From Heloderma charlesbogerti (taxonomy: Eukaryota; Chordata; Lepidosauria; Squamata; Helodermatidae): a stretch of 64,000 nt of DNA. Positions within the stretch are counted from its first letter, which is position 1; each line of letters starts with the position of its first letter. The translations under genes and the position numbers were made by a program. The notes beneath the pieces were generated by a model, which was given only the letters and a program-made list of their open reading frames with translations, made no database searches and was not told the DNA's origin. The stretch lies in the NCBI GenBank assembly GCA_026122225.1, contig JANEZZ010001513.1, forward strand, positions 868,001 through 932,000. The letters are read 5' to 3'. This document shows positions 6,423-57,311 of the stretch, piece after piece.

Positions 6423-7265
6423 TAGGGATGGACGAAAGTCCCTTACCTGGTCCCCCAGCTTGCTTCACGGTGTGGGGGAGGTGCTCCGTTTCTCCCCCCG
6501 AAATTCTTGGTGGGTGGGGAGGTGCCCTGTCCCTCCCTGCCGAAATTCTGGCCAGGGGGGGAGCGCCCCGCCTCTCCGGCCGCGAAAGTTCTTCTGCTGG
6601 GAAGGTTAAAAAAAACAACAATGTGATAGGCTACGTAAATCTTTACGTAGCCTATCACGGCTGACTTTGAAAAAAAAAAAGCGCGTATGCAAATGGTGGC
6701 GCCCATGGGCGCCGCCATTTGCGTTCCTTATTTTGGCATGGGTAGTCTACGTAAAGATTTACGTAGACTATGGCGAAAATAAGGGCAACGCTATTTGCAT
6801 TGCCCTTATTTTCGCCGTAGTCTACGTAAATCTTTATGTAGACTACCCGTGCCAAAATAAGGAATGCAAATGGCAGCGCCCATGGGCGCCGCCATTTGCA
6901 TACGCGCTTTTTTTTTTTTCAAAGTCAGCCGTGATAGGCTACGTAAAGATTTACATAGCCTATCACGGTGTTTTTTGAAAATCTAGCCGTGATAGGCTAC
7001 GTAAATCTTTACGCAGCCTATCACTTTTTTTTTTTTTTTTTACTTGGAAATGGCAGCGACGGCAGCCGGTCGGAAGACCGGCCACCGCCGCACCGCCGCC
7101 GCACTGCCGCCGGGACCCGCCGCTGTGAGGGACATTCGCACGAGGTAAGTCCCATCCCGGGGGGTGCGGGGGGGTGTCAGAGAATTTCTCCACCAATTTC
7201 GGGGGGCCGAATGCGTTGGCATTCGGCCTCCCGGAGATTCGTGGAGAAATTCTCCGACATCCCTA
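6423..7265 (+). mobile_element. Palindromic hAT element, full length (843 bp)
   Basis: Tips TAGGGATGGACGAAAG (end A) and, reversed, TAGGGATGTCGGAGAAT (end B). Perfect 8-bp duplication CTTCCCTG at 6415-6422 and 7266-7273. Order of parts: A tip, C/G-rich units, R module 6623-6660, B module about 6690-6722, T module about 6748-6775, centre near 6796, then the mirror image of each, an extra R module 6987-7024, poly-T, a CpG-rich stretch, and the B-end hairpin 7172-7256. Outward splice-donor matches at 7143-7150 (AGGTAAGT) and, on the minus strand, 6441-6448 (AGGTAAGG). ORFs here are by-products of the repeats. Confidence 0.9.
6623..6968. repeat. 346-bp palindrome made of smaller palindromes
   Basis: Reading inward from both sides gives the same series with few mismatches: R (GTGATAGGCTACG...), CTGACTTTGAAAA, GCGCGTATGCAAATGG, GGCGCCCATGGGCGCC, CCATTTGC, CCTTATTTTGGCA, T (GTAGTCTACGTAAA), GCGAAAATAAGGGCAACG, and a 7-base centre TATTTGC. 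R, T and B are each palindromic in their own right, so the structure is self-similar at two scales. Confidence 0.9.
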
Positions 7266-7273
7266 CTTCCCTG

Positions 7274-7782
7274 TATGTTTTAATACAGCTAACCATATCC
7301 CACTGATTCTCTCAGGGTTTTGGTATGCCCACTATATTTTATGTCCTCTCTTAGCACCAAGCTCCACAATTTTGGCTTGGAGGCTTCATTTAGCATTTAG
7401 CATTTAAGGACTGCTATGTTACTGTATGTCCTTCTCTAAATGTCCTTTTCATATGCAATTTCTAAACATCTATCTTCCCCCCACCGTTTTTTTTTTTTTG
7501 GTATACTCATTCCCAAATGCCATACTAACCCCAGTTGGATGACCAAAAACATTTATGCAATCATAGTGAAAGCATGAGTTATCCCAAAGTGGATGCTTCA
7601 CAGGTCGTTTCTGCTTTGCCCCTAAAAGTCCATTGTAATGTGGTTCCATAACAGTTCAAGTGGGGCTTCTTTGTGTCTCTTTTAATAGGCTTAGCTTTTC
7701 TAAAAATGTTCCTTTATCATTAATAGTAGTAGCAGCATTCGTATTGTTTTCTAAGGTGTTACAAATGGACATGGTGCTTCAC
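7274..7782. other. No feature recognised
   Basis: AT-rich DNA with a poly-T run near 7489-7499. No gene or repeat family identified. Confidence 0.4.
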
Positions 7783-7875
7783 AAAGCAATCCTACACATG
7801 TCTACTCAGAGGTAAGCCCTGCTGGGTTCAGTGGGCCTTACTCCCAGAAATGTACGTAGGTTTGCAACCTCTAAG
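7783..7875. mobile_element. Short palindromic MITE (AAGTAAGTCCC family)
   Basis: CAATCCTACACATGTCTAC at the left, GGTAAGCCCTGCTGG / GGGCCTTACTCCCAG in the middle and ATGTACGTAGGTTTGCAAC at the right form an imperfect palindrome. Related copies lie near 11886-11945 (partial), 27496-27585, 60364-60472 and 62378-62485. Confidence 0.6.
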
Positions 7876-7911
7876 GGATCCACAGTGCCAAGCAAATCTA
7901 ACATTATAGTC

Positions 7912-8510
7912 TTTGTGTAAGTGTTTATATCCCACCTTTCTATGATAAAGCACACACAAGGGAAATTACAAAATAAAAATATAAAACAAATAAATTTAAA
8001 ATACAACCTAAAAAATAAAAACAACAATAGCTATGAAACATCATCAGAAAAATATTCCTCCAACAGCAAAATAAAAACATGTCTACAAAATGCCTGCTGG
8101 AATAAAATGGAGTTAGAAGCCCATTTAAAAGTGAGTAAACAAAGGGCCACATGAACCTCCCTTGGGAGGCTATTCCGTAGCTTAAGTGCCACAGCTGGAA
8201 AGGGCTTTCTGTCTTGTCCTGGTCAACCTCACTTCTGTTGCTGAAGGCTGAACACAGATCTCGAGCAGGTCTGTGTGGGAGGAGGCAGTTCCTGAGGTAC
8301 CCTGGTTCCAGGCCATTTAAGGTACTAAAGGCCAGACCCAGCACCTTGAATTCATCCTGGAAACAAGAGTAATCAATGAAACTGGTAAAAATTGGCACAA
8401 ATGGTCCATCCTGCTGGCCCTGGACAAACGTCTCACTGCAGCATCTACATACTGAGACTCCAGTGCTCTGCCCGTCTTGTTGGCCATACATATGGGTAGC
8501 ATTTCTGGAA
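7912..8510 (-). mobile_element. L2-like LINE 3' end
   Basis: The minus strand carries the 3' part of an L2-like LINE: a C-terminal stretch with CTTGAATTCATCCTGGAAAC and GTACCCTGGTTCCAGGCC on the plus strand (encoding the reverse of '...GLEPGYLRNCLLPH...'), ending in an A-rich 3' UTR with TTTATATCCCACCTTTC at 7925-7941. It is 5'-truncated and frameshifted. The palindromic hAT at 8513 begins immediately after. Confidence 0.65.
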
Positions 8511-8512
8511 AT

Positions 8513-8910
8513 TAGGGATGCTGGAAAAATTTGAGCCAGATTAAAATGATCTTGGATTTCTAAGAAACTGACCTGTGGATTCAGCTGCGGAGCACCCCCT
8601 CAGGCCATGTGAAGTCTGTGGACTTTCGGATGATTTTTTTACTTTCCCGAAATTTACGCATACAAATCCGTAGGAAAATATGTAAGTTTCTGCTGAGGAA
8701 ATGCTGAATGGAACGGGGGCAATACACTAAATGTTATGTACTGAGGTAAATTATGTAAATAATTGTGTAAATATTTACGTAATTATTTGCGTATTTTTCC
8801 ACATGACGAAAAAAATTCACATCAGTCTGTCGGCAGACGACGGAAGGAAAGATGACTGACAATCCATGAAACACAGACGGAGCGTATTTTACACAGTCCG
8901 TACATCCCTA
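8513..8910. mobile_element. Diverged TAGGGATG hAT element
   Basis: Tips TAGGGATGCTGG and, reversed, TAGGGATGTACGGAC. Flanks share AAATT rather than a clean 8-bp repeat (left ..GGAAAT, right AATTAAAG), so it is older or ambiguous. The interior has a palindrome-rich AT block with TTATGTAAATAATTG and TATTTACGTAATTATTTG (8749-8792) instead of R modules. It may be an ancestral or sister subfamily lacking the GATAGGCTACG module. Confidence 0.6.
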
Positions 8911-9037
8911 AATTAAAGGCTATCTTGCAGAGCCATAGTTATAAAAGGGCCTACCTGGGCACTGGCCCCGGATCTTTTTTGAGTTGTGCCCCAGATCTTT
9001 TGAGCTGTCCTAATTGCTTTTTTTTTTTTTTTTTTTT

Positions 9038-9618
9038 TAGGGATGGCGGCAAATTCCGCCATGGACTCCAGGGAGGCTGGATTCTTTGGAATCTGGCCCC
9101 CCGGAGTCCATGGCGGAACGGAGCAATCCCCCCCCACCCCATGAAGTCTGAGCAAACCGGATCCTACCTGCCTTCAGCGGGTCCAGATCCAGCCGCTGCT
9201 GGCTGCAGCCGTGAATGGCGTCCTGTGTAGCGGACACCATTGGCGTGCCTCCCTTTGGCCATGATAGGCTATGTAAAGATTTACGTAGCCCATCATGGCA
9301 AAAAGGGAGGCATGCAAATGGCATCAGCTATGCCATTTGCATGCCTCCCTTTTTGCTGTGATAGGCTACGTAAATCCTTACGTGGCCTATCATGGCAAAG
9401 CAGGGATGCAAATGGCATCCCCGACATGGGACGCCATTTGCGGCTGCAGCCCGGCCGCAGCCAGAAGTCAAGCTATGGCAGGCGGCCCCAGCCGGTGGCT
9501 CCGCGGACTTGCCGTGAAGTGGAGCCAGCCAGGGAGGATTCCAGGGGGGAGGAACAGATCACCTCCCCCCCGGCGGACCCCCCGCAGATGCAAGTAAGTG
9601 GGGTTTCGTACACCCCTA
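9038..9618 (-). mobile_element. Palindromic hAT element (581 bp)
   Basis: End B lies at the left (TAGGGATGGCGGCAAATTCC, then a hairpin to about 9118) and end A at the right (reversed: TAGGGGTGTACGAAACC). It sits in a poly-T tract, so the 8-bp duplication is only T-rich and uninformative. The centre is a palindrome 9259-9396 with two R modules around a B module, GCATGCAAATGGCATC / GCCATTTGCATGCC. Outward splice-donor-like matches lie at 9163-9169 (minus, AGGTAGG) and 9593-9599 (plus, AGTAAGT). Confidence 0.85.
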
Positions 9619-9696
9619 TTTTTTAAAAACGTTTTCCCATTGACTTGCATTGGAAAACAGAAATAGCCATAACTTTTTTAGTTTGTAGAATACATA

Positions 9697-10648: not shown

Positions 10649-11376
10649 TAGGGATGTCAGAGAATTCTGCCACAGATCTCGGTGAGGCTGAATGCCAGTG
10701 CATTCGGCCCCCCGAAATCCATGGCGGAACGAAGCCCCCTGCCTTCCCCCGTGAAAGGCGCACAAAATGGGACACCTACCTGCTGCTGTTCGCACTGACG
10801 TGTGAATGGTGGCCCCATCTGCTTCATCACTATAGCCGCGATAGGCTACATAAATACTTACATAGCCTTTCATGGCTAACACAGGGACACCATTTGTGTC
10901 CCTGCGGAAGCCGTGATAGGCTGCGTAAGTATTTACGTAGCCTATCACGGCAAAAAAAAAGGGAAAGCAAATGGCGGTGGTTACAGTGGCCGCCATTTGC
11001 GTTCCCTTTCTTTTTGGCCGTGATAGCCTACATAAATATTTACGTAGGCTATTATGGCAAAAGAGAGGGGCGCAAATGGCGTAGTGGCCACCATTTGCGT
11101 TTCATTTTTTTTTTGCCGTGATAGGCTATGTAAATATTTACATAGCCTATCACAGCAAAATACAGGGATGCAAATGGCGGCGGCTATGGCAGCCGCCATT
11201 TGCGTCCCTGCAGGCTGCCCAGCGGCCGGATGTCCAACTGTGGGCGGCCCCAGCCGGCGGCTCCGTAGAATCTCCGCGGAGCGGAGCTGGCTGGAGAGAA
11301 TTTCGGGGGGGGGGAGCGCCTCCCCCCACCGCGAATGCCGCCCTTCAAAAAGGTAAGTGATTTTCATATGTCCCTA
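10649..11376 (-). mobile_element. Palindromic hAT element (728 bp)
   Basis: Perfect 8-bp duplication GCTAAAAA at 10641-10648 and 11377-11384. End B at the left (TAGGGATGTCAGAGAATTC), end A at the right (reversed: TAGGGACATATGAAAATC). R modules at about 10850-10874 (decayed), 10914-10950, 11020-11057 and 11117-11154 alternate with B modules (GCAAATGGCGG / CCGCCATTTGCGT). Plus-strand splice-donor match AGGTAAGT at 11351-11358 reads out of end A. Confidence 0.9.
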
Positions 11377-11384
11377 GCTAAAAA

Positions 11385-11945: not shown

Positions 11946-12151
11946 TGAGTACTGCAAGCTTAATGCAGTGCCTCCCCAATTCCATGTAATGAATTGACTA
12001 CCCTTTCAGCTCAGTCCTATTCATGTTTTGTCATTTGTGGGTTTGGGTTTTTTTTTCATGAACTCTAGCTTCAGTGGTGAGGGAAAGGCACTTAGTGCAT
12101 GCTCAGAGTTTCTCCATAACTCAGCCCTAGTTTTGAAAACAGACTCATTGG

Positions 12152-13905: not shown

Positions 13906-14262
13906 TAGGGGTGTATGAATCACTTACCTTGTTTCACTGGGGCCATCCGTGGTCGGGGGGAGGTGCTCCATCCCTCCCTCTGGAATCCTCCCCAGCTGGC
14001 TGCACTCCACTGTGACTTCATGGAGCCCCTGGCCGGGGCCAGCTGCAGCTGGACTTCCAGCCGCAGCCAGGCTGTGGCTGCAAATGGTGCAGCCACTACA
14101 CCAGCCGCCATTTGCGTTCCGGCCAAACCATGATAGGCTGCGTAAGTATCTACGTAGCCTATCACAGCAAAAGACAGGGACGCAAATGGCTGCCGCTATG
14201 CATAGATACTAACGTAGCCTATTACAGCAAAGAGTCTGTGATGGAATTCCCCAACATCCCTA
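13906..14262 (+). mobile_element. Palindromic hAT element, short form (357 bp)
   Basis: Perfect 8-bp duplication GTTCCCTT at 13898-13905 and 14263-14270. End A at the left (TAGGGGTGTATGAATCACTT), end B tip at the right (reversed: TAGGGATGTTGGGGAATTCC). One intact R module at 14129-14166, one B module, then the partial right half of an R module at 14203-14225. The right half of the palindrome and most of the B-end hairpin are missing, so it is an internal deletion derivative. Minus-strand donor match AGGTAAGT at 13922-13929. Confidence 0.9.
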
Positions 14263-18974: not shown

Positions 18975-19801
18975 TTAAGAACATAAGAAGAACCATGCTG
19001 CATCAGACAAAGGGTCCATCTAGTCCAGCATTCTGTTCACACACTGGCCAACCAGCTGTTAACCAGGAACCCACAAGCAGGGTGTGAGTGCAACAGCACC
19101 CTCCCGCCCATGTTCCCCAGCAACTGATGTACATAGGCTCACTGCCTCTGGTACTGGAGATAGCACATAGCCATCGCGACTAGTAGCCCTTGATAGCCTT
19201 TCCCCCATGAATTTGTCCAACATCCTTTTAAAGCCATCCAAATTGGTGGCCATCACTACATCCTGTGGTAGTGAATTCCATAGTTTAACTATGCACAGTG
19301 TGAAGAAGCACTTCCTTTTATCTGTCCTGAATCTCCGACCAATCAACTTCATAGGATGACCTCAGGTTCTAGTATTTTGACAGAGGGAGAAAGATGTCTC
19401 CCTATCCACGTTCTCCATACCATGCATAATTTTGTAGATCTCTATCATGTCTCCCCTTACCCCCCCTTTTCCAAACTAAACAAGCCAAACTGTTGAACCT
19501 CCTCTCATAGGGGAGATGCTCCAGCCCCTTACTCATTTTAGTTGCCCTTTTCTGCACTGTTCCCAGCTCTACAATATCTTTTTTTAGGTGTGGTGACAAG
19601 AACTGTGGCTGCACCATAGATTTGTATAGGGGCAGTATGATATTGTCAGTTTTATTCTCAATTCCTTTTCCATTTATGCCTAACATGGAGTTTGTCTTTT
19701 TTTTTTTTTTTACAGCAGCCTCACACTGGGTTGACATCTTCATTGAGCTGTCCACCACAACCCCAAGATCTCTTTCCTGGTTGGTCACCGCTAGCTCAGA
19801 T

Positions 19802-20156
19802 TAGGGTTGTCAGAGAATTCCGCCACGGACTCCAGTGAGGCTGGATTCTTTAATCTGTGGTGGAACGGCCTCCTGCCCCCTGCCACCCCGCAGAATCTCC
19901 CCAGGATGGAGCTTACCTGGGGTGGATGCGGTGGCGGTGGCAGCTGCAGCGGTGGCAGCTCCAGCGGCGGCGGCTCCAGCTGGTCTCCCATCGTAGCGGC
20001 CGCCATTTGCGTCCTTGCAGGCAGCCGTGATAGGCTATGTAAGTATTTACATAGCCTATCATGGCAAAGAGCAGGGGCGCAAATGGCGGCCACTATGCCT
20101 CCCCCCCACTGCAGATGCCCCGGTGCGGAGCCAGGTAGGTGTTTCATACATCCCTA
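19802..20156 (-). mobile_element. Palindromic hAT element, short form (355 bp)
   Basis: Perfect 8-bp duplication GCTCAGAT at 19794-19801 and 20157-20164, inside CR1. End B at the left (TAGGGTTGTCAGAGAATTCC), end A at the right (reversed: TAGGGATGTATGAAACACC). A single R module at 20025-20062 is flanked by B halves (GGCCGCCATTTGCGTCC and GCGCAAATGGCGGCC). Outward donor-like matches: minus AGGTAAGC at 19911-19918 and plus AGGTAGGT at 20133-20140. A (GGTGGC)-rich stretch lies at 19921-19985. Confidence 0.9.
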
Positions 20157-20334
20157 GCTCAGATCCCATCAGGCTATACTTGAAGTTGGGATTTTTTGCC
20201 CCAAGATGCATCACTTTACACTTGCTTATACTGAACTGCATTTGCCATTTAAATGCCCATTCTCCCAGCTGGAGAGACCCTTTTGGACCCTCTTCACAAT
20301 CCCTTTTTGTTTTAACTACCCTAAATAATTTGGT

Positions 20335-20987
20335 TAGGGGTGTACGAAACCCCACTTACCTGGATCCGCTGGGGTCCGCGGGTGGGGGGAGGCGATCCGT
20401 TCCTCCTCCCAGAATCCTCAACAGGGGGGGAGGTGATCTGGTCCTCCCCGCCGGAATCCTGCCCGGCTGGCTCTGCTCCTCGGCCAGTCTGTGGAGCCGC
20501 TGGCCAGGCCGATCCACAGCAGAGCCTCTATCCTGCGTAGGGGATGCCATTTGTGTCCCTACGCTAGCCCGTGATAGGCTACGTATATACTTATGCAGCC
20601 TATCACGGCTAAAGCAGGGACGCAAATGGCGTAGGGGACGCCATTTCCATCCCTGCTTTAGCCGTGATAGGCTACGTAAATATATATGTAGCCTATCAGA
20701 GGCTAGCATTGGGACACAAATGGCGGCCGCTACCACGGCCCCCATTTGATTTGCAGCCACAGTAGCCCAGCAGCAGCCAGAGCTGCTGCCGCTTCATCCG
20801 ATGACACATCCACCACCGCCGGCACATCCGCCGCTGTCACTGCATCCACCACCAGGTAGGTCTGCCCCGGGGGGATTTGGGGGGGGTGGCAGTGAGGGGG
20901 GAGGCCATTCCACCACAGACTCTGGGGGGCTGGATTCCAAAGAATCTGGCCTCACTGGAGTCCGTGGAGATTTCCCTAACATCTCTA
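20335..20987 (+). mobile_element. Palindromic hAT element (653 bp)
   Basis: Perfect 8-bp duplication AATTTGGT at 20327-20334 and 20988-20995, inside CR1. End A at the left (TAGGGGTGTACGAAACCCC), end B at the right with hairpin 20905-20975 (GGCTGGATTC / GAATCTGGC loop region). Two R modules at 20567-20606 and 20661-20697 flank a B palindrome. Donor matches: minus AGGTAAGT at 20354-20361, plus AGGTAGGT at 20853-20860. Confidence 0.9.
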
Positions 20988-21599
20988 AATTTGGTGTCAT
21001 CTGCAAACGTGGCCACTTTACTGCCTCACTCCTAATTCCAGATCATTTATGGACAGGTTGGAAAGCATTAGTCCTAATACAGATTCCTGTGGGACCACAC
21101 TATTTACTTCCCTCCATTAGGAGAATTTACCATTTATTCCTGCTCCCTGCTTTCTGTTCTTTAACCAGTTACTGATCCATAAGAGGACCTGTCCTTTTAT
21201 TCCATGACTGCAAAGTTTGCTCAGGAGTCTTTGGTGAGGGACTTTGCCAAAAGCCTTTTGGAAGTTCAAGTAAACAGTGTCTACCGGATCACCCCTATCT
21301 GCATGTTTATTGACACTCTCAAAGTGTCAAAAGTTCTTTGAGTTCTCAAAGAACTCTAAAAGGTTAGTGAGACAGGACTTACCTTTGCAGAAGCCATGTT
21401 GATTCTTTTTCAGCAGGGCTTGTCCTTCTATATGCTTACTAATTTTATCTTTAATAATGTCTTCAACCAATTTACCCGTAACAGATGTTTAGCTAACTGG
21501 CCTGTAATTTCCTGGATCCCCCCTGGATCCCTTTTTGAAAAATGGTGTTTGTTACATTGGCCATCTTACAGTCCTCCGGTATAGAGGCTGATCTTAGGG

Positions 21600-21905
21600 A
21601 CATGTTGCATTTTTTGGTTAGAAGATCAGCAGTTTCATATTTGAGTCTTTGGGAACTCTAGGATGGATATCATCTGGGCCCCGTGATTTGTTTGCTTTCA
21701 ATTTATCAATAAGGTTGAGAACTTCATCTTTTGTCACCACTATTTGCCTCAGTTCCTCAGACTCCCTTCCTGAAAACATCAATTCAGGCACAGGTATCTG
21801 TCCTATATCTTCTGCAGTGAAGACGAATGAAAAGATTTCATTCAGCTTCTCTGCAATCTCTTTATCCTCCTTCAGTAACCCTTTAACTCCATTGTCAACC
21901 AACAG
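21600..21905 (-). pseudogene. CR1 ORF2 remnant, start of RT domain
   Basis: The largest surviving frame (about 94 aa, 21618-21902) has EIAEKLNEIFSFVFT, VTKDEVLNLIDKLKANKS and GPDDIHPRVPKD, which correspond to the linker and first conserved block of CR1-type reverse transcriptase. Downstream RT blocks (21600 toward 20990) are present as DNA but broken by stops and frameshifts. Inactive. Confidence 0.75.
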
Positions 21906-22215
21906 TCCAACTGCCTCCCTAGCTGGTTTTCTGCTTCTGATATATTTAAAGAATTCTTTATTGTTGGCCTTGATGTTGTTAGCAATATGCTCTTCAAAAT
22001 GCTTTTTTGCATCTCTTATTGTCTGCTTGCATCACCTTTGTGCAGGCTTGTGGTCCCTTTTGTTTTCCTCGTTGGGCAACAATGCCTAACCTGTGATATA
22101 CATTTTAGCTGGGCTTCTATTATTGTGGTTTTGAGTAATCTCTAAGCATTCTGAAGGGATTTAATCCTTTTGACTCCCCTTTTTAATGTCCTTTTCACCA
22201 ATTCCCTCATTTTAG

Positions 22216-23188
22216 TAGGGATGTACGAAAGTTCCACCACAGATCTCGGAATCGGTGACGGAATGGCCCCCGAAATTGGTGATGGAATGGCCCCCCGCCC
22301 CCCCGGGACGGGACTTACCTTAGGCGGATCTTCCTGGCGGCGGCGGCTCTGGCGGCGGCTCCGGTGGCAGTGTGGCGGCGGCCGGTCTTCCGACCGGCTG
22401 CCGCCGCCGCCATTTCCAGGTAAAACAAACAAACAAAAAAAGTGATAGGCTACGTAAAGATTTACGTAGCCTATCACAGCTAGATTTTAAAAGAACACCG
22501 TGATAGGCTATGTAAATGTTTACGTAGCCTATCACGGCTGAGTTAAAAAACAAAAACAAAAACGTGCGTACGCAAATGGCGGCGCCCATGGGCACCACCA
22601 TTTGCGTTCCTTATTTTGGCACGTCTTAGTCTACATAAACATTTATGTAGACTAAGACAGCGAAAATAAGGGGAACGCAAATAGCGTAGCATCTACGCTA
22701 TTTGAGTTCCCCTTATTCTCGCTGTCTTAGTCTATGTAAATGTTTACGTAGACTAAGATGTGCCGAAATAAGGAACACAAATGGTGGCGCCCATGGGCGC
22801 CGCCATTTGCGTACGCACGTTTTTGTTTTTTAACTCAGCCGTGATAGGCTACGTTAAAAATCGCACGGTTTTTGTTTTTAATCAGCCGTGATAGGCTATG
22901 TAAACATTTACATAGCCTATTATGGCTGACTGCAGGGATGCAAACGGCGGCGGCTACAGCCGCCGCTGTTTGCATCCCTGCTAGCCAGCAGCTGGATGTC
23001 CAGCTGCTGGCGGAGCCGGCCAGCGGCTCCGCAGAATCCCTGTGGAGCGGAGCCGGCCGGCCAGGATTCCGGGGGGGGAAGAACGGAGCACCTCCCCCCC
23101 CAGCCAGGATTCCAGGGGGAGGGACGGAACGCCTCCCCCCAGCATCAGCATAATCCGCGGAAAGGTAAGTACCTTTCGTACATCCCTA
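22216..23188. mobile_element. Palindromic hAT element, longest copy (973 bp)
   Basis: Perfect 8-bp duplication CATTTTAG at 22208-22215 and 23189-23196. Both tips are A-like (TAGGGATGTACGAAAG at the left; CTTTCGTACATCCCTA at the right), although the left subterminal part (CCACCACAGATCTCGG) is B-like, so the left end looks chimeric. It contains R modules at 22441-22478, 22499-22537 and 22885-22924, a broken R near 22842, T modules near 22626 and 22728, and B modules. Donors: minus AGGTAAGT 22313-22320, plus AGGTAAGT 23163-23170. Confidence 0.9.
22442..22925. repeat. ~480-bp nested palindrome with a broken R module
   Basis: Centre near 22690 (GCGTAGC / CTACGC region inside GGGGAACGCAAATA and TATTTGAGTTCCCC). 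The right arm has a collapsed R module at 22840-22860 that switches after GGCTACGTTAA into a repeat of the GCACGGTTTTTGTTTT spacer, a template-switch-like scar. Confidence 0.8.
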
Positions 23189-30400: not shown

Positions 30401-30822
30401 TAGGGATGGGGCAGAAATTAGCTGAGTTTGCATTTTAATGCAAGTGTACCCATTTTTTCACTTTTGAACAAATACATGAATTGAAACACAGTCATCTTTC
30501 AAAATTCACACCTCTTCGAATTTTGATGCAGTTTGTCAATCAAAAAATGGTACAAAAATGTATATATTAGAACATTTGTGCAAAAATATGTATGAAAATA
30601 ATATACAAAAATGTACGAAAATGATGTACAAAAATGCTTTATATTAGGCAAAATTACACACACACACATGTGTATATTATGAGAAATGCTCATAAAAATG
30701 GGTATGACTTTTCATGCTAACTTGTTTTAAAAATTCTCAGAGCGATCTGGAAATGGGACAAACCAATCTTAAGACTGGAAAAAAGGGAAACTGAGAGAAA
30801 CCGAAATTGATATCAGTCCCTA
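30401..30822. mobile_element. Diverged TAGGGATG hAT element
   Basis: Tips TAGGGATGGGGCAG and, reversed, TAGGGACTGATATC. The flanks TGAGGAGG and CAAGGAGG match at 6 of 8 positions, consistent with an old duplication. The interior is AT-rich with repeated ACAAAAATGTA-like units (30555-30640) and lacks the R module. Confidence 0.6.
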
Positions 30823-34800: not shown

Positions 34801-36386
34801 CCAACATCCCTATCCCCATTACTTCTGACCTTCCTCCCATTAAGCCAAAAAGTCTGAAGGGCTTCTAATTGCATTTGTTTGAATGCAAATCTCTTGACAT
34901 GATCAGGAATCCTGATTTATGAAGGCTTCTGACTGGGTGGAGGGTTCAACTTGCATTCAAACAAACTTGAGTAGAAGCTGCCTTCAGACCTTCCTAGTTA
35001 ATGCAGGGAAGGACAGGAACAATAGGGGTGGGGCTGATGTGTATGGAAATTTGGGGGGGCAGGACCAGCACACACAGACCCATGCTCCTTGCTTGAGTTG
35101 GTATTTCCTGTTCAGGCATAACACCTGAACATGTCTGGCTTTGTGTGGTGTTCCAACCCAGTGGTGCTGGCCAGTCTTACAAAAGCTGGTACAATGTAAA
35201 ATGGTCAAGATACAGTATTGTACTGGTGCAATAATTTTTGGTGTCCTGTCCTAAAATGTTATTTGCTGGCACAGGGTAGACAGGGAGGGAAAAGGACAGT
35301 CAATACTGAAGTATAAGAAGCCCCAAAGGCAGTTGAATGTGTGGGAGGTGAGACCTCAAAATGATGTTTGGAATAAAAAACATTATCTATCTCCGTCCAT
35401 AATTTACACTATAGCAAAGGTGGAGAATCTGTGGCCCTCCAGATCTTCTTGGACTGAAACTGCCATCATCCCTGGGCATTGGCTAGCCTCAGCCAGCATG
35501 GCCAATGGTGGGGGATGATGAGCGTTTCAGTCCAAGAATAGCGGGGGAGGGCAGAGGTTCACCACCCCCTTGCAATATATAGCATGCCCAATGAATTTTG
35601 GAAGACAGTCTTCTTCAGGGACACAAGGATCTCATTTCACTTAACGGCAACGCATGAACTGTTACCTGAAGTAGAATGAGAATTTTGAATCCCTGAAATG
35701 TCTCCCAAATTAGTTGGGCATACAATATTGTAATATAGCGTATTTACTTCAAGTATCATTTTCAGGCCTCATCTCCCTCCTTTTCTGGCTTCAGGCAAAG
35801 GATTAGGCTTTTGGTGGCTCTTTGCTTCTTGATGAGTTACAGGGTTTTAGTTAGTGCTGGGCTGCAGCATTCTAGCTGAATTCTGTTGGTTGTGGGATGG
35901 GACAAAATCTTTGGGAGCTGGGCTAATTTAAAGACATTGCAGCTTATCTTTTAAATGAGGTGGCTGAGCATGGTTTTGCTTTTTAAAAAAATCCTTTTTA
36001 GAATTATTATCATTACCCCGCCCCAATACCTAGCTGCCATGTTCCTGAACAGAACATCCTAGGAACAACACTATGTCATGAAGTAGCATCATTCCCCGTG
36101 GCATTCTGTTCAGGAACTCAGCACAGCTAGAACCACCAAACTACCCCTTAAGGCAGTGGTAAGTCTTTGTTGTTTTGCTGTTCTTTCTTAAAAAAGAATC
36201 TTTTTTAAAAGGAAAACTGCGGCCATCTCATATTTAAAAGGTAAATTGAATTTTCTTTACATTAGCCCACCCCCTGAAATTCATTCAATATCCCCTCCCA
36301 CTTTTGTGAGGAATGAATTGTCCCACAAAAATGAGCAAGGGATATTCAGCAGACCTTGAGATTTAGGCCCTGTTTAGAAAGACAAG
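31816..36386. other. Long stretch without recognised genes
   Basis: Contains a TTTC/(CT)n microsatellite at 32360-32391, an (AAT)n run at 34052-34070, a short hAT-type MITE at 35414-35571, and a GTTC-rich inverted repeat (CATGTTCCTGAACAGAA at 36039, TTCTGTTCAGGAACTC at 36104). The 33200-34200 part has few signs of repeats and could be conserved non-coding DNA. A TTATTAAAGAACAG motif near 31950 could be part of a solo LTR, not demonstrated. Confidence 0.4.
35414..35571. mobile_element. Hairpin hAT-type MITE
   Basis: GGTGGAGAATCTGTGGCCC and TCTTCTTGGACTGAAACTGC at the left pair with the complementary right arm (GTTTCAGTCCAAGAATAG, AGAGGTTCACCACCCC). The centre CCTCAGCCAGCATGGCC is shared with the hairpins at 1-192 and 51924-52052. 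Confidence 0.75.
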
Positions 36387-43165: not shown

Positions 43166-43541
43166 CATGGGCGCCGCCATTTGCGTACGCGCGGTTTATT
43201 GTGTTTTTTTTACTCAGCCGTGATAGGCTACGTAAACATTTACGTAGCCTGTCACGGTGCTTTTTAAAATTTAGCCGTGATAGGCTACGTAAATCTTTAC
43301 GTAGCCTATCACTTTTTTTTTGTTTTGTTTTTTAAACTTGGAAATGGCGGTGGTGGTGGCCGGTCGGAAGACCGGCCGCCGCTGCCGAACCGCCGCCGGA
43401 GCCGCTGCCGCCAGGAGGATTCGCCCAAGGTAAGTCCTGTCCCGGGGCGGGGGCAGACCGTTTCGCCACTAATTTCGGGGGGCCGAATGCACTGGCATTC
43501 GGCCTCCCCGAGATTCGTGGCGAAATTCTCTGACATCCCTA
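43166..43541 (+). mobile_element. Right half of a palindromic hAT, cut at a palindrome centre
   Basis: Begins abruptly at CATGGGCGCCGCC, the dyad centre of a B module, then GTACGCGCGG, two R modules (43218-43256, 43275-43312), poly-T, the CpG-rich region and the B-end hairpin with tip (reversed) TAGGGATGTCAGAGAATTTC. The A end and left arm are absent. Outward donor AGGTAAGT at 43428-43435. Sequence is closest to the right half of 6423-7265. Confidence 0.85.
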
Positions 43542-46233: not shown

Positions 46234-47968
46234 CTTCAGCAAAGGAGATTGTTACCTTGTCGTGGTGCTGGAGCTTGAGCACTTCAATGACGCCATGAGC
46301 TAAACCATGAAGAGACACCCAAGACAGGAAGGTCATGGCAGAGAGGTCAGACTAAATACGATCCCTGAGGAAGGTAACGGCAACCCACCCCGGTATTCTT
46401 GCCGTGAAAACTAAATGGATCAGTACAACCAGAGATATGTCGGTATACCATCGGAAGATGGGACTCCCAGGTCGGAAGATGGTCAAAATGCTACTGGTGA
46501 GGAACAGAGGATAAATTCAACTAGCCCCAAATGTGATGACGCAGCTAGCTCAAAGCCGAAAGGACGACTAGCAGCCAACAGTGCTGGTGGTGAACGACGA
46601 ATCCAATGTTCTAAAGATCAACACACCATAGGAAGCTGGAATGTAAGATCTATGAGCCAGGGCAAATTGGATATGGTTATTGGGGAGATGTCAAGATTAA
46701 ATATAGACATTTTGGATGTCAGTGAACTGGAATGGACTGGAATGGGCCACTTCACATCAAATGGCCACCAGATCTACTACTGTGGACAAAAGGACCACAG
46801 ACGAAATGGAGTAGCCTTCATAATTATTAATAAAGTGGCTAAAGCAGTGCTTGGATACAATCCAAAAAATGACAGAATGATCTCAATTTGAATTCAGGGT
46901 AAGCCATTTAACATCACAGTGATCCAAATATACGTCCCAACTACAGATGCTGAAGAAGCAGAAGTAGATCAGTTCTATGAGGATCTGCAGCACCTACTGG
47001 ATAGTACGCCCCCAAAAGATGTTATTTTCATTACAGGAGACTGGAATGCTAAGGTGGGTAGTCAAACGACACCTGGAACTACAGGCAAGCATGGTCTGGG
47101 AGAACAAAATGAAGCAGGACATAGGCTGATAGAATTTTGCCAAGACAACTCACTGTGCATAACAAACATTCTTCCAATAACCTAAAAGATGACTTTATAC
47201 ACGGACTTCACCAGATGGTTGACAATGAAATCAGATTGACTACATCCTTTGTAGCCAAAGATGGTGGACATCTATGCAGTCGGTAAAAACAAGACCTGAA
47301 GCTGACTGTAGCTTAGATCATGAACTTCTTATTGCACAATTTAGAATCAAACTAAAGAGAATAGGGAAGATCCACAGATCAGTTAGATATGAGCTCACTA
47401 ATATTCCTAATGAATATGCAGTGGAGGTGAAGAATAGATTTAAGGGACCAGATTTAGTAGATAGGGTCCCGGAAGAACTATGGACAGAAGTTTGCAACAT
47501 TATTCAGGAGGTGGCAACAAAAAATGTCCCAAAGAAAAAGAAAACCAAGAAGGCAAGATGGCTGTCTGCTGAGACACTGGAAGTAGCCCAAGAAAGAAGG
47601 AAAGCAAAAGGCAACAGTGATAGGGAGAGATATGCCCAATTAAATGCAAAATTCCAGAGGTTAACCAGAAGAGATCAGGAATTATTTTTAAACAAGCAAT
47701 GCGCGGAAGTGGAAGAAGATAATAGAATAGGAAGAACAAGAGACCTCTTCCAGAAAATTAGAAACATCGGAGGTAAATTCCAGGCAAAAGTGGGTGTGAT
47801 CAAAGACAAAGATGGCAAAGACCTAACAGAAGCAGAAGAGATCAAGAAAAGGTGGCAAGAATATACAGAAGATCTGTTTAGGAAGGTTAATAATATCGGG
47901 GATAGATTTGACGGTGTGGTCAGTGAGGTAGAGCCAGACATCCTGAAGAGTGAGGTTGAATGGGCCTT

Positions 47969-47972
47969 ATAT

Positions 47973-48003
<31 letters not shown>

Positions 48004-48032
48004 TTTCTATACCGCCCAATAGCCGAAGCTCT
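47969..48032 (-). mobile_element. Very short L2-like LINE tail in BovB
   Basis: (TTTA)n then TCTATACCGCCCAATAGCC GAAGCTCT is the complement of the L2-like 3' end seen at 57840-57910. Removing it rejoins the BovB frame (..EWAL / RSIANNK). Confidence 0.8.
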
Positions 48033-48628
48033 TAAGAAGCATTGCTAATAACAAGGCAGCAGGAGATGACGGTATCCCAGCTGAACTGTTTAAAATCTTG
48101 CAAGATGATGCTGTCAAGGTGATACATGCCATATGCCAGCAAATTTGGAAAACACAAGAATGGCCAACAGATTGGAAAAAATCAACTTATATCCCCATAC
48201 CAAAAAAGGGAAACATTAAAGAATGTTCAAACTATCGAACAGTGGCACTTATTTCACATGCCAGTAAGGTAATGCTCAAGATCTTGCAAGGTAGACTCCA
48301 GCAATTCATGGAACGAGAATTGCCAGATGTACAAGTTGGGTTTAGAAAAGGCAGAGGAACTAGAGACCAAATTGCCAACATCTGCTGGATAATGGAGAAA
48401 GCCAGGGTGTTTCAGGAAAACATCTATTCCTGTTTTATTGATTATTCTAAAGCCTTTGACTGTGTGGATCATAACAAATTGTGGCAAGTTATGGTGGTAT
48501 GGGGATACCAAGTCATCTTGTCTGCCTCCTGAGGAATCTGTATAACAACCAAGTAGCAACGGTAAGAACAGACCATGGAACAACAGACTGGTTTAAGATT
48601 GGGAAAGGAGTACGGCAGGGTTGTATAC

Positions 48629-49169
48629 TGTCAGGGTGGAAACTGAGTCCAGACAGCCCCAGAGCAGTTCTGATTCTGAGGAGGAACAGCCATCTGTGTG
48701 AGTGGAGCCAGCTCATCCCTCACAGGCTCAGCACCTGGCAGAGATTCCTCCTGCCAGCATTCCAGATATAGTTAGTGACCCAGGGAGTGAGGGAGTGCGG
48801 GAGGGGGGCTTCTTAGACGCTCAACGCAGATGCAAAGAGCGACGAGCAATGGAGGGCGCGGAAAGGAAGGGTAGCGCCCATTTGGCGCGCAAGCAACGAC
48901 CGCCTCCCTTGGACCCAAGGGAAAGAGGGAGGATATCTCCCTAGCCAATAAGTTCTGGGTCTTCAAGTGACTCTCTTTCAAACGGGGATCAACTGCCTGC
49001 CTGAAGCGTAGTCCACGCTGCTGTTCTTTGCCTTAGCCGCTGGTGATTAGCATCTGAAAGAGTCATTAAGCTGTAATGGGATTAAAGCTTTGAAAAGAAT
49101 TCCCTTTTGTCTGTGTCTTGAGTTGGCTGTTGGAATCTACTGAGAGAGGCCGCCAAGTCGTTCCTGACA
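48629..49169. mobile_element. Solo LTR with 5-bp TSD in BovB
   Basis: Tips TGTCAGG and CCTGACA (TG...CA) flanked by TATAC at 48624-48628 and 49170-49174, the 5-bp duplication expected of Gypsy-type or some retroviral elements. 541 bp, with GGGATTAAAGCTTTGAAAAG near 49079 (possible polyadenylation region). No internal coding region; formed by LTR-LTR recombination. Superfamily not settled. Confidence 0.8.
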
Positions 49170-49279
49170 TATACTCTCACCCTACCTATTCAACCTGTAC
49201 GCAGAACACATCATGCGACGTGCTGGGCTTGATGAATCCAAGGCTGGAGTTAAAATTGCTGGAAGAAACATTAACAATC

Positions 49280-49898
49280 TAGGGATGTATGAAATCCCTA
49301 CCTGGCTCCGTGCTGGTCAATCCGCAGTGGTGGGGAGGCGCTTCGTCCCTCCCCATGGAATCCTCCCTGGCCGGCTCCACTCCGTGGTGGCTCCAGCCAC
49401 AGCCGGAGTTCCGGCCACTGCCGGGCTGCTGCAGCCACAAACGGTGGCCGTCATAGCGGCCGCCATTTGCGTCCTTGCGGTAAGCCATGATCGGCTACGT
49501 ACGTAAGTATTTATGTAGCCTATCACGGCAAAAGGCAGCCACACAAATGGTGTCTGCTACACCATTTGCATGGCTGCCTTTTGCCGTGGTAGGCTACGTA
49601 AATACTTACGTAGCCTATCACGGCTTACTGCAAGGATGCAAATGGCATAGTGGCTGCCATTTGCACCCCTGCTCTTTGCCGTGATAGGCTACATTAGTAT
49701 TTATGGCCGCAGCAGCCTGCCAGTGGCCAGGAGACCAGCTGGAGCCGTGGACGCCTCCACATCCACCACCGCCACCGGAGCCGTACGATCCGCCACCAGG
49801 TATGTTCCATCCCAGGGGGATTCCGTGGGGGGTGAGGGAGGCCATTCTGCCACGGATTCTGGGGGGGGCGGATTCTAAAGAATTCTCTGACATCCCTA
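49280..49898 (+). mobile_element. Palindromic hAT element (619 bp) in BovB RT
   Basis: Perfect 8-bp duplication TAACAATC (49272-49279, 49899-49906). It splits the BovB YADD motif codons. End A at the left (TAGGGATGTATGAAATCCC), end B at the right. R modules at 49482-49526 (with an extra ACGT, GGCTACGTACGTAAGT), 49580-49621 and a half module at 49680. Donor-like sites AGGTAGGG (minus, 49298) and AGGTATGT (plus, 49797). Confidence 0.92.
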
Positions 49899-50306
49899 TA
49901 ACAATCTCAGATATGCAGATGATACCACTTTGATGGCTGAAAGCGAGGAGGAGCTGAGGAACTTTATGACAAAGGTGAAAGAATAAAGTGCAAAAGCTGG
50001 GTTGCAGTTAAACCTCAAAAAAAACAAAATTATGGCAACCAGCTTGATTGATAACTGGCAAATTGAGGGAGAAAACGTGGTGGCAGTGACAGACTGTATT
50101 TCTAGGATTATTAAAGATTACTGCAGACGCTGACTGCAGCCAGGAAATCAGGAAATCATGGATGAATGATATTCTGGAGGTGACGGACTCGCCCTTCGGG
50201 GAGCTGGGGGTGGCGACGGCTGACAGGAAGCTCTGGCATGGGCTGGTCCATGAAGTCACAAAGAGTCGGAAGCGACTGAGCGAATAAACAACAACAGTCT
50301 TGGATG

Positions 50307-52052: not shown

Positions 52053-52060
52053 CTCTAGGT

Positions 52061-53685: not shown

Positions 53686-54180
53686 TGAGCTTTCCTACAC
53701 AAGGCATTTATTGTGCACTCATCATTCCCTACTCACAGTTGTTTATGGGTTCTTTAGATGACATTGTGACCCTCCAGTTTCGCTTCTGTTTTTAGCTGTT
53801 TAAATTGTTTTTAAGTTTGTATATTTAAATTTTTATGGTATATTTTATTTTTTGAATTGTTGTGAACTGCCCAGAGAACTTTTGGCCATTGGGCAGTATA
53901 GAAATGAAAATACAACAACAACAAGAACAACAACAACAAGCACTGTCTGTGAGGTTTTTTTAGAGCAGGGAAAATGGGGTATTATTTCTGAAAGTGAAAA
54001 AAAAGCTGTCTCCATTTGTGTATTTGGGCTATTCTGATATATTACAGCGCCACCCAGTGGTTATGTAGTGAAAAGCAGGAAAGGAAATGCTCCACCTGTG
54101 GTGCTCAGATCTTAATTCTGCAACGAAAACAAAAGTAGATGCAGCGGATTTACAGCCTTGTGTAGAAAAATCCAGTAAGT
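53686..54180. mobile_element. CTACACAAGGC-family repeat, copy 2, with L2-like tail insert
   Basis: Left end TTTCCTACACAAGGC and right end GCCTTGTGTAGAAAAA are inverted termini. Between 53785 and 53938 an L2-like 3' UTR (TGTGAACTGCCCAGAGAAC with (AAC)n tail) interrupts the GTGACCCTCCAGTTTCGCTT region. Body landmarks match copy 1 (23790) and copy 3 (60594). Confidence 0.75.
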
Positions 54181-54620
54181 GGTCCAGGACTTGACAGTGA
54201 CCTGCTGCATAGGCGTAATTAAGCAAAGTTTTGAACCAGGATTTTCCAAAAATAAGCTCTGCCCTCCAACCACACCATTAGAGAGGCTCTAGGCATACAT
54301 GTTGAACTGTGGGCATTTCTGTGACCACCATTCTTGTGTGGGTGACTCATGTACTGCTTTCATGTGTTACATTTGTGATGTAACACATTCCCCCCTGCCC
54401 TGGAACTCCTTCCCTAGGCAAGCTTCCCATGTTAAGAATACTCCACAGCACATTAAAAAATATCTGTCATCTGTAAGAATACCCCACATCTGTAAGGCTT
54501 CTGAGATCCACTGTTATGTTTCTGTTATGTCTCTTCCATCCTACATGTGAAACCTGGCCACAGTTCATAAAGGCCACATCCAATTTGTAAATTTTCGCAA
54601 AGTAGGGAAGACTACCTATT
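54181..54620. other. No feature recognised
   Basis: No gene or repeat identified. Confidence 0.4.
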
Positions 54621-55018
54621 AGGGATGGGGGGATTCCCTACCTGTCGTTCTGGCTGGGAATCCGCCCTTACAGGGAGGCGATCCATCCCTCCCCTCGGAA
54701 TCCTAGCCAGCTGGCTCCGCTCCATGGCAATTCCACGGAGCCACCAGCTGGCTCTGGAGCACCAGCGATACGGCCACCATTGCCATTTTGCTGGCTGAGG
54801 CTGACTGTCTCCGGACACAAATGGCATCCGCTACGCCATTTGCGGCCGTAAAGTTCTTAGATTAAGCTAAATGCAGCTGAAAATGGCTGCATTTAGCTTA
54901 AACTAAGGGCTTTACGGATGCAAATGGAGTCTGCTATGCCATTTGCGTCTGGTTTTTCATGCGATAGGCTAGCTGTGGACTCCACTGGGGTCCATGGAGG
55001 AATTCTCCGCCATCCCTA
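54621..55018 (+). mobile_element. Palindromic hAT element, variant module (398 bp)
   Basis: Tips TAGGGATGGGGGGATTCCC and, reversed, TAGGGATGGCGGAGAATTCC. Flanks CTACCTAT and CCACCAAT match at 6 of 8. The R module is replaced by another palindrome at 54849-54916 (AGCTAAATGCAGCTG / GGCTGCATTTAGCTT), flanked by B modules (CAAATGGCATCCGC, GCTACGCCATTTGCG). A last half R (ATGCGATAGGCTAG) lies at 54959. Confidence 0.8.
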
Positions 55019-55026
55019 CCACCAAT

Positions 55027-55560
55027 AGCTATTGCTGCCCCATCACATAATTAGGAAACAACCACCAACTGAAGGTTTTTTTGTTCTAAAATTGGTAAAA
55101 CGAGACTTTTGACTTTGCAGCTATGTTTACAGGCTGAGATGTTGAACCCCATTTGGGTGATGGTTGGGGAAGCATGAATTTTGCCCACTGCGCTGTGTGA
55201 AACCCCTCATGGACTACATTTTTTCAGTGGCTGTTTGGTGACACCATAAGACAGGAAAAAGACATCCCATTGCCTAGGTAACTTGAGGAGGCCTCTGTCT
55301 TCCTACATTGTTCTATGCAGACAGAGAAGCATTCCCAATGTTGCCTAGGAAACTGGGCAACTTCCTGATTATTTTGGCCCTGGTGCTATCTCTAAAAAAT
55401 TGAAACAGTCACTGAAGAAATGAAGTAAAGATGGTGGGTCACAGACTACAATGGCTGCATTTTGTGCCCCCTCCTCAAACCTGAACATAAATTGGGATAT
55501 TATCCAGGATAAAATTGTCCAGGATAAAATCTCTTGCATCTGCTGGGACTTAAGACACTA
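55027..55560. other. No feature recognised
   Basis: No gene or repeat identified. Confidence 0.4.
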
Positions 55561-55599
55561 GTCTTACAGCAGGTGAATCTGGCGAGGTGTTCAGAGCAC

Positions 55600-56705
55600 A
55601 GCCTTGTCCAGTTTTCTTGGATGAATTTCAGTTGGTACAGCTCGGGGATGTTGACAAGGTGCTTGGACTGGTTCATGCAGCCACTTCTGTACTGGATCCT
55701 TGCCCTCCTTGGCTTATAAAAACTGGCAGGGAAGGAACAGCTGGCTGGGCCAGGGAGGTGATAAATGCCTTCTTGTGAGAGGGAGTGGTACCGGGCTGCC
55801 TCAAAGAGGTGGTGGTGAGACCATTCCTAAAGAAACCCTCCCTGGATCCAGAAAATATAAGTAATTTTAGGCCAGTGGCAAATGTTCCTTTCCTGGGCAA
55901 GGTTCCAGAGCAGCTGGTTGCCAACCAGCTTCAGATACTCTTTGGTGAGACTGATTATATAGATCCATTTCAGTTGGGGTTCAGGCTGAATTTTGGCATG
56001 GAAACAGCCTTGGTCACCCTGTATGATGACCTATGTCGGGAGAGAGACAAGGGTAGTGTGACCTTGTTGATCTCCTTGATTTCTTGGTGGCTTTCGATAC
56101 CATCAGCCATGGTATCCTTCTGGGGCAATTGTCTGAGTTGGGAGTGGGAGGCACTGCATTGCAGTGGTTTCGCTACTACTTGGATGGTTGGCTAGAGAAG
56201 GTGGTACTTGGGGAATATTACTTGGCCCCGTGGACTCTCCAGTATGGGGTTCTGCAGGGGTCGGTTTTGTCCCCCATGTTATTCAACATCTACATGAAAC
56301 CGTTGAGTGTGATCATCCAGAGTTTGGGGGTGAATTGTCATCTGTATGCTGATGACATGCAGCTCTATTTCTCCTTTTCATTTTCTTCAGCTGAGGCTGT
56401 GAAAGGGCTAAATCAGTGGCTGGCTGCAAAAATGGACTAGATGAGGGCTGATAAGCTGAAACTCAGTCCAGACAAGACTGAGATGCTGTTAGTGGATGGT
56501 TCTGCTGACTGGATGGAGGGTGCTCAACCTGTTCTGGATGGGGTTGCACGCCTGCTGGAGGAGCAGGTTCATAGCTTGGTGGTCCTCCTGGAGCCATCTT
56601 TGTCACTTGAGGCTCAAGTAGCCTCAGTGGCATGGAGTGACTTCTACCAGCTTTGGTTGGTGGCCCAGCTACGCACCTATCTGGACAGGGATAACCTATC
56701 TGGAC
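55600..56705 (+). pseudogene. L2-like reverse transcriptase, broken
   Basis: RT blocks in order: FLKKPSLDPENISNFRPVAN (55823), VANQLQILFGETDYIDPFQ (55915), then after a frameshift near 56075 VAFDTISHG (56087), QGSVLSPMLFNIYMKPL (56256) and HLYADDMQLYF (56338, catalytic YADD intact). An in-frame stop at 56438 lies where relatives have Trp (KMD-stop-MRADKLKLSPDKTEML). No endonuclease. The fragment cannot make a functional protein. Confidence 0.88.
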
Positions 56706-56716
56706 AATGATAATGG

Positions 56717-57311
56717 TAGGGATGTACGAAAGTCACTTACCTGTGACGAAATTTGATTCACGGTGGAGGGGAGGCGCTCCGTCCCTCCCCCCAAAGTTCT
56801 GGCTGGGGGGGAGGCGTCCCGTCCCTCCCCCCCCAAAATTCTGGCTGGGGGGGGAGGTGCCCTGTCCCTCCCCCCCGAAATTCTGGCTGGGGGGGAGGCG
56901 CCCCGTCCCTCCCGCCGCGAATCCTGTCCTGCTGGGTCTGCAAATGGCAGCGGCCATAGCCGCCGCCGTTTGCATCCCTGCAGTCAGCCGTGATAGGCTA
57001 CGTAAATGTTTACGTCGCCTATCATGGCTGAGTGAAAAAAAAAACCCGCGCGTACGCAAATGGCGGCACCCATGGGCGCTGCCATTTGCGTTCCTTATTT
57101 TGGCACGTCTAGTCTACGTAAATATTTATGTAGACTATGGCGAAAATAAGGGGAACGCAAATAGCGTAGACCCGCTGCCGCCAGGGAGATTCGCCCAAGG
57201 TAAGTCCCGTCCCAGGGGGGGGGCAGACCGTTTTGCCACCGATTTCGGGGGGCCGAATGCGCTGGCATTCGGCCTTCCTGCGATTCGTGGTGAAATTCTC
57301 TGACATCCCTA
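56717..57311 (+). mobile_element. Palindromic hAT element with deleted right arm (595 bp)
   Basis: Perfect 8-bp duplication GATAATGG (56709-56716, 57312-57319). End A with a four-unit C/G-rich tandem (56771-56935), one R module (56988-57026), a B module, a T module (57112-57139), then at the palindrome centre (about 57168) the sequence jumps to CCCGCTGCCGCCAGG of the right CpG-rich flank. The whole right arm is missing. Donors: minus AGGTAAGT 56735-56742, plus AGGTAAGT 57198-57205. Confidence 0.92.
56771..56935. repeat. Four-unit C/G-rich tandem in hAT end A (~41 bp period)
   Basis: Units start at 56771, 56811, 56854 and 56895 with GAGGCG/GAGGTG and contain CCGTCCCTCCCC then TTCTGGCTGGGGGG. 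Other copies have one to three units (6480-6595, 20385-20460, 23065-23140). Overlapping long frames here arise from the repeats. Confidence 0.85.

What the first reader, a model, noticed from the sequence alone, without database searches (positions are those of the whole stretch)
6423..57311. A burst family of hAT transposons with self-similar palindromes
Sixteen elements or pieces share TAGGGATG tips. Nine carry perfect 8-bp target duplications: CTTCCCTG, GCTAAAAA, CTCATTGG, GTTCCCTT, GCTCAGAT, AATTTGGT, CATTTTAG, TAACAATC and GATAATGG. Perfect 8-bp duplications and the tip type place them in the hAT superfamily. Interiors are alternating palindromic modules (R: GTGATAGGCTACGTAAA with its complement across a 2-base spacer; T: TAGTCTACGTAAA; B: GCAAATGGCGGC with its complement) arranged as a palindrome of palindromes. 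I know of foldback elements and of hAT MITEs, but not of this two-scale design. That it is undescribed is inference from memory.
Basis: partly seen in the sequence, partly recalled or inferred. Interest (0 to 1): 0.92.

Follow-up and report, generated by a model that had tools for sequence, protein, structure and literature searches.

The report
Jumping genes built from nested palindromes
These are short parasitic DNA elements, probably of a lizard or other squamate, that lost their own gene; many carry mirror-image copies of one end of a larger hAT transposon found in the same genome, which shows how a mobile element can be rebuilt out of part of itself.

Summary
All nine claimed perfect 8-bp target duplications are there, and the palindromic modules are real and far beyond chance. 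The own genome (2.30 Gb) holds 160,794 exact R half-sites and 35,780 exact R dyads. R halves are nearly always 2 bp apart: 131 of 134 scanned units, and all 50 dyads listed from the genome.

The elements are non-autonomous hAT transposons, and I found a likely parent. It is 9,387 bp (G000:C235:52195-61581), flanked by a perfect 8-bp duplication, with the same two unlike ends. It carries an 879-aa frame with BED and hAT-dimerisation domains and, on the other strand, a Myb/SANT exon. The ~387 bp at its type-1 end hold one copy of the module array (T-B-R-R; T-C-T-B-R-R in four other copies). Short elements of the T-centred kind keep the tips and that array, lack the 8.6-kb interior, and often carry the array again inverted: that is the outer palindrome, centred on a hairpin the parent already has. 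R-B elements match the parent only weakly.

Inferred, not shown: snap-back copying, and R as a protein-binding site. Repbase/Dfam could not be searched. New variant of a known kind.

The parts
6423..7265 (.). E1, complete element, TSD CTTCCCTG; modules R-B-T-C-T-B-R-R; palindrome 6670-6918
8513..8910 (.). E2, diverged TAGGGATG-tipped element, no R units, no matching TSD
9038..9618 (.). E3, B-R-B-R type, TSD 6/8 in a poly-T tract
10649..11376 (.). E4, R-B alternating type, TSD GCTAAAAA
12152..13057 (.). E5, full double-arm type R-R-B-T-C-T-B-R-R, TSD CTCATTGG; closest in the window to the parent's right end
13906..14262 (.). E6, short R-B element, TSD GTTCCCTT
19802..20156 (.). E7, short element inside a LINE frame, TSD GCTCAGAT; empty site restores the local frame
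20335..20987 (.). E8, R-B type inside the same LINE, TSD AATTTGGT; empty site restores the local frame
22216..23188 (.). E9, double-arm type, TSD CATTTTAG, palindrome 22552-22830
43168..43541 (.). E10, half element: starts within 2 nt of a B-palindrome centre (by eye), keeps R-R and the type-2 end
49280..49898 (.). E11, R-B type inside a LINE reverse transcriptase, TSD TAACAATC; empty site reads NINNLRYADDTTLM
54620..55018 (.). E12, B-containing element with a different centre, TSD 6/8
56717..57311 (.). E13, single-arm form (B-R-B-T and half of C), TSD GATAATGG
58490..58720 (.). E14, fragment with one R dyad; ends approximate
6623..6658 (.). example of a perfect R dyad GTGATAGGCTACGTAAA-TC-TTTACGTAGCCTATCAC (32 R/T units in the window)

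Best explanation
The elements are non-autonomous members of a hAT family whose larger, coding form is in the same genome. SHOWN: a 9,387-bp element with 8-bp TSDs (C235:52195-61581) has the same two unlike ends, a BED + hAT-dimerisation frame and, at its type-1 end, one copy of the array T-B-R-R (T-C-T-B-R-R in four other copies). T-centred short elements keep the tips plus this array and lack the interior; many carry the array again in inverted orientation, giving the outer palindrome. The inner palindromes (R, T, B, C) are already in the parent. INFERRED: transposase from parents moves the short elements in trans by cut and paste. They arose when gap repair or replication, copying inward from the type-1 end, reached the parent's T-C-T hairpin, folded back, copied the arm outward a second time and then joined the type-2 end, deleting the gene. 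R dyads (fixed 2-bp spacer, conserved core) are protein-binding sites in the subterminal array, by analogy with hAT subterminal repeats; which protein binds them is unknown. R-B alternating elements are taken to come from a related parent that I did not find.
For: Parent: TSD CACAACAC on both sides, left end TAGGGATGTCAGAGAAATTC, right end CTTTCATCCACCCCAA; Pfam Dimer_Tnp_hAT 1.3e-16 and zf-BED 6.8e-5; Hermes in PDB 3.6e-15. Its unique right-interior segment has at least 40 copies (40 of 200 candidates scored), 27 of the 40 at >=95%; 29 of the 40 lie 3.4-4.6 kb downstream of, and on the same strand as, one of the 150 listed hAT-domain hits. Array: T-B-R-R in C235, T-C-T-B-R-R in 4 of 5 right ends read. 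The parent's right 387 bp aligns nearly end to end to E5 (79%) and F13 (80%), and its inner 255 and 275 bp align again inverted (89% and 74%); paired matches in both orientations also in F6, F3, E1, F11, E9, F9; the parent interior has no match in any of 26 elements. By coverage, 18 of 26 hold >=150 bp of the array in both orientations, a figure inflated because modules are themselves palindromic. Arms agree within elements: 8 double-arm elements, 28 non-independent pairs, 312 sites shared within an element versus 15 same-arm and 20 cross. Spacer 2 bp in 131 of 134 units, core TGATAGGCTA 95-100% per position.
Against: Only one parent copy has a demonstrated TSD; C1330 has no matching TSD and its left tip lies 2 bp from another element's tip. 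Left ends match the parent only over about 30 bp by eye: the parent's left 406 bp gave no blast hit at 1e-5. F3 and F5 arms are not alike (13% and 18% non-CpG), so arms do not always agree. Rearrangement ends are not enriched at palindrome axes: 7 of 314 within 2 nt, expected 20.9. R-B elements (E4, F4, F8 and others) match the parent array mostly at 62-70%; E6 and E12 show no match. R has no significant likeness to the tip.
Confidence: 0.8

Rival explanations
1. The two arms are kept alike after formation by arm-to-arm conversion (template switching between hairpin arms), so the double-arm form is old and continuously corrected, rather than born repeatedly from single-arm parents.
For: Within-element non-CpG divergence 0-5.3% in 6 of 8 double-arm elements against a between-element mean of 12.9%. 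By eye in the alignment, E5 has one flank of T rewritten as the complement of the other. B hairpin arms co-vary: 24 both-side cells versus 12.6 in shuffles, reached in 1 of 500, though related sequences can exceed such shuffles. F3 carries one E5-like arm, so arms do exchange.
Against: The parent already has the T-C-T centre, so a shared centre no longer proves one double-arm ancestor; repeated births from different parent variants give the same pattern. The two halves of R change mostly one at a time.
Confidence: 0.35
2. The palindromes are selected for single-strand hairpin formation, helping amplification during replication, as has been proposed for other short inverted-repeat elements (recalled, not from a call).
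For: Very strong folding in the three elements folded, z -19 to -49; B stems co-vary.
Against: Changes in R are mostly on one arm without compensation and its core is kept as sequence; the parent keeps the array without the full outer palindrome.
Confidence: 0.12
3. The elements belong to another superfamily with about 8-bp duplications (P, or Mutator-like foldbacks).
For: P-superfamily Galileo has 7-8-bp TSDs and Tetris 8-10 bp (passages).
Against: A larger element with the same ends encodes a hAT transposase.
Confidence: 0.03

Closest known systems
Hermes and Tol2 (hAT) ends
   Same: Unlike ends with subterminal repeats; a BED-domain transposase; a short quasi-palindrome beside the tip. Hermes BED binds AAGT repeats and Tol2 has AAGTACTT after its TIR (PMC10368747, passages). 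Here AAGTCACTT stands beside the type-1 tip in 5 of 25 elements (by eye) and in 4 of 5 parent right ends (by eye).
   Different: The array here extends ~387 bp inward as ~40-bp dyads with a fixed 2-bp spacer, is duplicated in inverted orientation in many short forms, and the parent carries a Myb/SANT exon. The R consensus has no AAGT.
Mar, hAT MITE of Drosophila
   Same: Short, non-coding, short TIRs, 8-bp TSDs, derived from a larger hAT (PMC3517528, passages).
   Different: Described there as arising by internal deletion; the words palindrome, hairpin, secondary structure and foldback do not occur in that text. No nnnTAnnn TSD consensus here (19 TSDs).
Galileo, Tetris (foldback-like elements)
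   Same: Long inverted repeats, modular; in two of three complete Tetris copies the repeats group together within the copy (PMC4079207, PMC4168063, passages).
   Different: There the long inverted repeats are terminal; here they are internal, the two termini differ, and the superfamily is hAT.

Membership tests
hAT superfamily | 8-bp target site duplication | tested here: met
   9 of 9 named ones in the window; 15 further elements in 13 of 20 R-selected loci, 9 at 8/8 and 6 at 7/8 (a 16th hit, in L020, dropped because its tips do not match); the other 7 loci gave none
hAT superfamily | short TIR of YAGGG type | tested here: met
   TAGGG(A/G)TG tips, about 8-10 bp shared between the two ends; that this type marks hAT is recalled
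hAT superfamily | hAT transposase with dimerisation domain in an element with the same ends | tested here: met
   C235 parent: Pfam PF05699 and PF02892, ends and TSD
hAT superfamily | mobilisation of these ends by that transposase | not testable with these tools
   needs an excision assay
hAT Buster or Ac subgroup | TSD consensus nnnTAnnn (Buster) or nTnnnnAn (Ac, recalled) | tested here: inconclusive
   19 TSDs: T at position 4 in 4, A at position 5 in 8; T at position 2 in 10, A at position 7 in 5
MITE / non-autonomous element | no coding capacity, derived from a larger element | tested here: met
   parent interior: 0 hits in 26 elements; no transposase domain in 10 window frames searched (the rest of the 81 were not searched)
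Foldback element | long terminal inverted repeats reaching the tips | tested here: not met
   ends are of two types and the long inverted repeats are internal

The most novel reading that the evidence does not exclude
A two-protein hAT system (BED transposase plus Myb/SANT accessory protein) reads an array of rigid 2-bp-spaced dyads at one end. Its non-autonomous derivatives win by snapping back and doubling that array, so element shape is driven by competition for the binding protein. The result seeded tens of thousands of identical dyads in one vertebrate genome.
Probability: 0.25. Interest if true: 0.8.

Novelty: new variant of a known kind. Interest (0 to 1): 0.62.

Why it matters
How short non-autonomous transposons acquire interiors unlike their parents is an old question. 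Here a parent, a single-arm form (E13) and double-arm forms sit in one genome, and the parent already holds the hairpin on which the duplication is centred, so the route can be tested copy by copy. 35,780 exact dyads in one genome also means a very large supply of one dimer-type site.

Tried and rejected
R as a copy of the tip: local alignment p 0.198 in shuffles, rejected.

Breakpoints at palindrome centres: suggested by E10, E13 and E9 by eye, but in aggregate 7 of 314 HSP-end clusters lie within 2 nt of an axis against 20.9 expected. HSP ends mostly mark module edges, so the measure is crude, but it does not support the idea.

I first read the arm agreement as proof of arm-to-arm conversion, because E1 and E5 share a centre. 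The parent's own T-C-T centre removed that argument; conversion is now a rival.

CATCCCTA 337 bp after the hAT domain looked like the parent's end; homology runs on beyond it, so it was rejected.

R patterns in viral contigs and genome contigs: 0 matches. C1 is poor in the family: the R hits listed span its first 5.26 Mb at about 19 per Mb, against about 70 per Mb genome-wide. So I give no genome fraction. The genome-wide count for the exact 2-bp spacer and the left-end search never got an answer.

Papers: ten searches, each showing only its top listing; none of the papers listed is about this family by title and abstract start. Module strings occur in 5 papers, none about transposons by title. 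Only four papers were opened, all by passages. Absence in this library is not absence in Repbase/Dfam.
Full report
WHAT IS THERE. A scan of 89 tip pairs gave 8 at 8/8 and 4 at 6/8 where shifted controls gave 0.02 (8/8) and 0.59 (>=6). blastn finds 14 family stretches and one weak one. E7, E8 and E11 lie inside LINE coding frames; taking out the element with one copy of the duplication rejoins the local frame, for E11 across ...NINNLRYADDTTLM... (RVT_1 in frames near E11 and E13). So boundaries and duplications are exact.

THE MODULES. R/T units are dyads of TAG(G/T)CTACGTAAA with a 2-nt spacer: 31 of 32 in the window, 0 in shuffles. Over the window and 20 further loci, 131 of 134 units have 2 nt, 2 have 1 and 1 has 6. 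The spacer letters vary while its length does not. In the 100 R units with that spacer, TGATAGGCTA is kept at 95-100% per position. Part of that string was the search pattern, but TGA was not; positions -12 to -7 outside run 31-69%. The CpG letters fall to 84-90%. Within the conserved half-site, changes sit mostly on one arm, which argues for a kept sequence rather than a kept stem. B hairpins do co-vary: 24 both-side cells against 12.6 shuffled. Hairpins cover up to 54% of an element, against about 1% of background.

THE ENDS. By eye, of 12 complete window elements 10 have one type-1 end (TAGGGATGTACGAAAG..CTTACC and variants) and one type-2 end (TAGGGATGTCAGAGAATT.., often a terminal hairpin); E9 is a hybrid and E2 diverged. 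Of 14 further elements, 13 have one of each (F9 with an odd type-1 end) and F14 is a hybrid. ACTTACC lies in the first 34 nt of the type-1 end in 13 of 25.

GENOME SCALE. The own genome answered after several busy calls: GTGATAGGCTACGTAAA occurs 80,660 + 80,134 times, the backward-read control 0 and 1. The dyad with a 0-8-nt gap occurs exactly at 35,780 places, control 0, and all 50 distinct places listed, all on contig C1, have a 2-nt gap. Of 20 loci picked because they hold R hits, 13 gave 15 elements with >=7/8 duplications; in L027 one is nested in another. Across 25 elements the layouts are R-R-B-T-C-T-B-R-R or parts of it, or alternating B-R.

THE PARENT. PF05699 gives at least 150 hits in G000, several in open frames of about 880 aa. 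Two were read outward. C235:52195-61581 is 9,387 bp between CACAACAC duplications; the left end is type-2, the right end type-1 with its first letters changed (TTGGGG). The 879-aa frame has zf-BED and Dimer_Tnp_hAT; all four PDB sequences matched are transposases, two of them named Hermes. Its best protein relatives are squamate (Sceloporus, Phrynocephalus, Paroedura, Eublepharis, Sphaerodactylus; 36-42%), the only call-based pointer to the host. On the other strand lies a Myb/SANT exon (PF13837, 2.4e-9). C1330 is a second copy, 99.3% identical over 6,965 bp, with both ends but no matching duplication. The unique right-interior segment has at least 40 copies; 29 of these 40 lie 3.4-4.6 kb downstream of a listed hAT hit on the same strand.

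HOW THE SHORT ELEMENTS RELATE. The parent's type-1 end carries, going outward, T-C-T-B-R-R (4 of 5 right ends; C235 has one T fewer), then AGGTAAGTGACTTTC and the tip (one letter differs in C2157). This 387-bp end aligns nearly end to end with E5 and F13, and its inner part aligns again inverted, as the outer palindrome requires; the interior is absent from all 26 elements compared. Loose coverage in both orientations is 18 of 26, inflated by the modules' own symmetry. E13 keeps one arm. R-B elements match only at about 62-70%, and E6 and E12 not at all, so for them this parent is not shown. For the T-centred kind the series is: parent with one array, single-arm short form, double-arm short forms.

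ARMS. In the first three double-arm elements, sites separating two elements are shared by both arms of each 19:0, 13:0 (one cross) and 17:0; 4 of the 19 are at the alignment edge and may be chance. Differences between arms are mostly CpG changes in E1 and E5 (9 of 11, 5 of 8) and about half in E9 (10 of 19). With eight elements the totals are 312: 15: 20 over 28 non-independent pairs. F3 and F5 have unlike arms, and F3 has one E5-like arm, so arms are also swapped. The centre loop lies in either orientation, as expected if stems can flip. Because the parent holds the centre, I prefer repeated birth by fold-back copying over one old, corrected palindrome, at perhaps two to one.

FUNCTION. Subterminal repeats bound by BED domains, some as quasi-palindromes, are described for Hermes and pointed out for Tol2 (PMC10368747, passages). 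The type-1 end shows the same AAGT/ACTT arrangement beside the tip in some elements. That R is a binding site is inference from its place in the parent, its fixed spacing and its kept core; the Myb/SANT protein is as good a candidate as BED.

STANDING. A member of the hAT superfamily by every test run except subgroup, which is open. It works like a MITE but differs from those compared in having a doubled subterminal array of rigid dyads and a parent with a Myb/SANT exon. Not a foldback element in the strict sense. Novelty relative to Repbase/Dfam is untested.

Noticed in passing
proteins P0001, P0003, P0004: Squamate proteins related to the parent transposase carry SCAN and, in two of these three, KRAB domains together with BED and hAT-dimerisation domains, which suggests host-transposase fusion genes.
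   Followed up: no
C235 about 60200-60560, minus (end of L064 and start of L067): A Myb/SANT-like exon inside the parent hAT on the opposite strand, with an acidic frame further along: an unusual second gene for a hAT, as far as I recall.
   Followed up: partly
window 46415-50000, 19059-22031, 55779-57700: Remains of three LINEs (RTE-like, CR1-like, L2/CR1-like; names recalled); E11, then E7 and E8, then E13 are inserted in them.
   Followed up: partly
window 30401-30822: TAGGGATG-tipped element with a 6/8 duplication and no R units, possibly another branch of the family.
   Followed up: no
L027 1622-3718: A family member (2321-3146) nested in another one, each with its own duplication (8/8 and 7/8).
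   Followed up: partly
L064 1-420 (C235 about 53.0-53.4 kb): Tandem repeat of about 97 bp near the parent's left end.
   Followed up: no
window 58382-58490: Piece of another repeat containing GTGCAGGGGTCCCCAACCC, beside fragment E14; looks like a different hAT-type element from memory.
   Followed up: no
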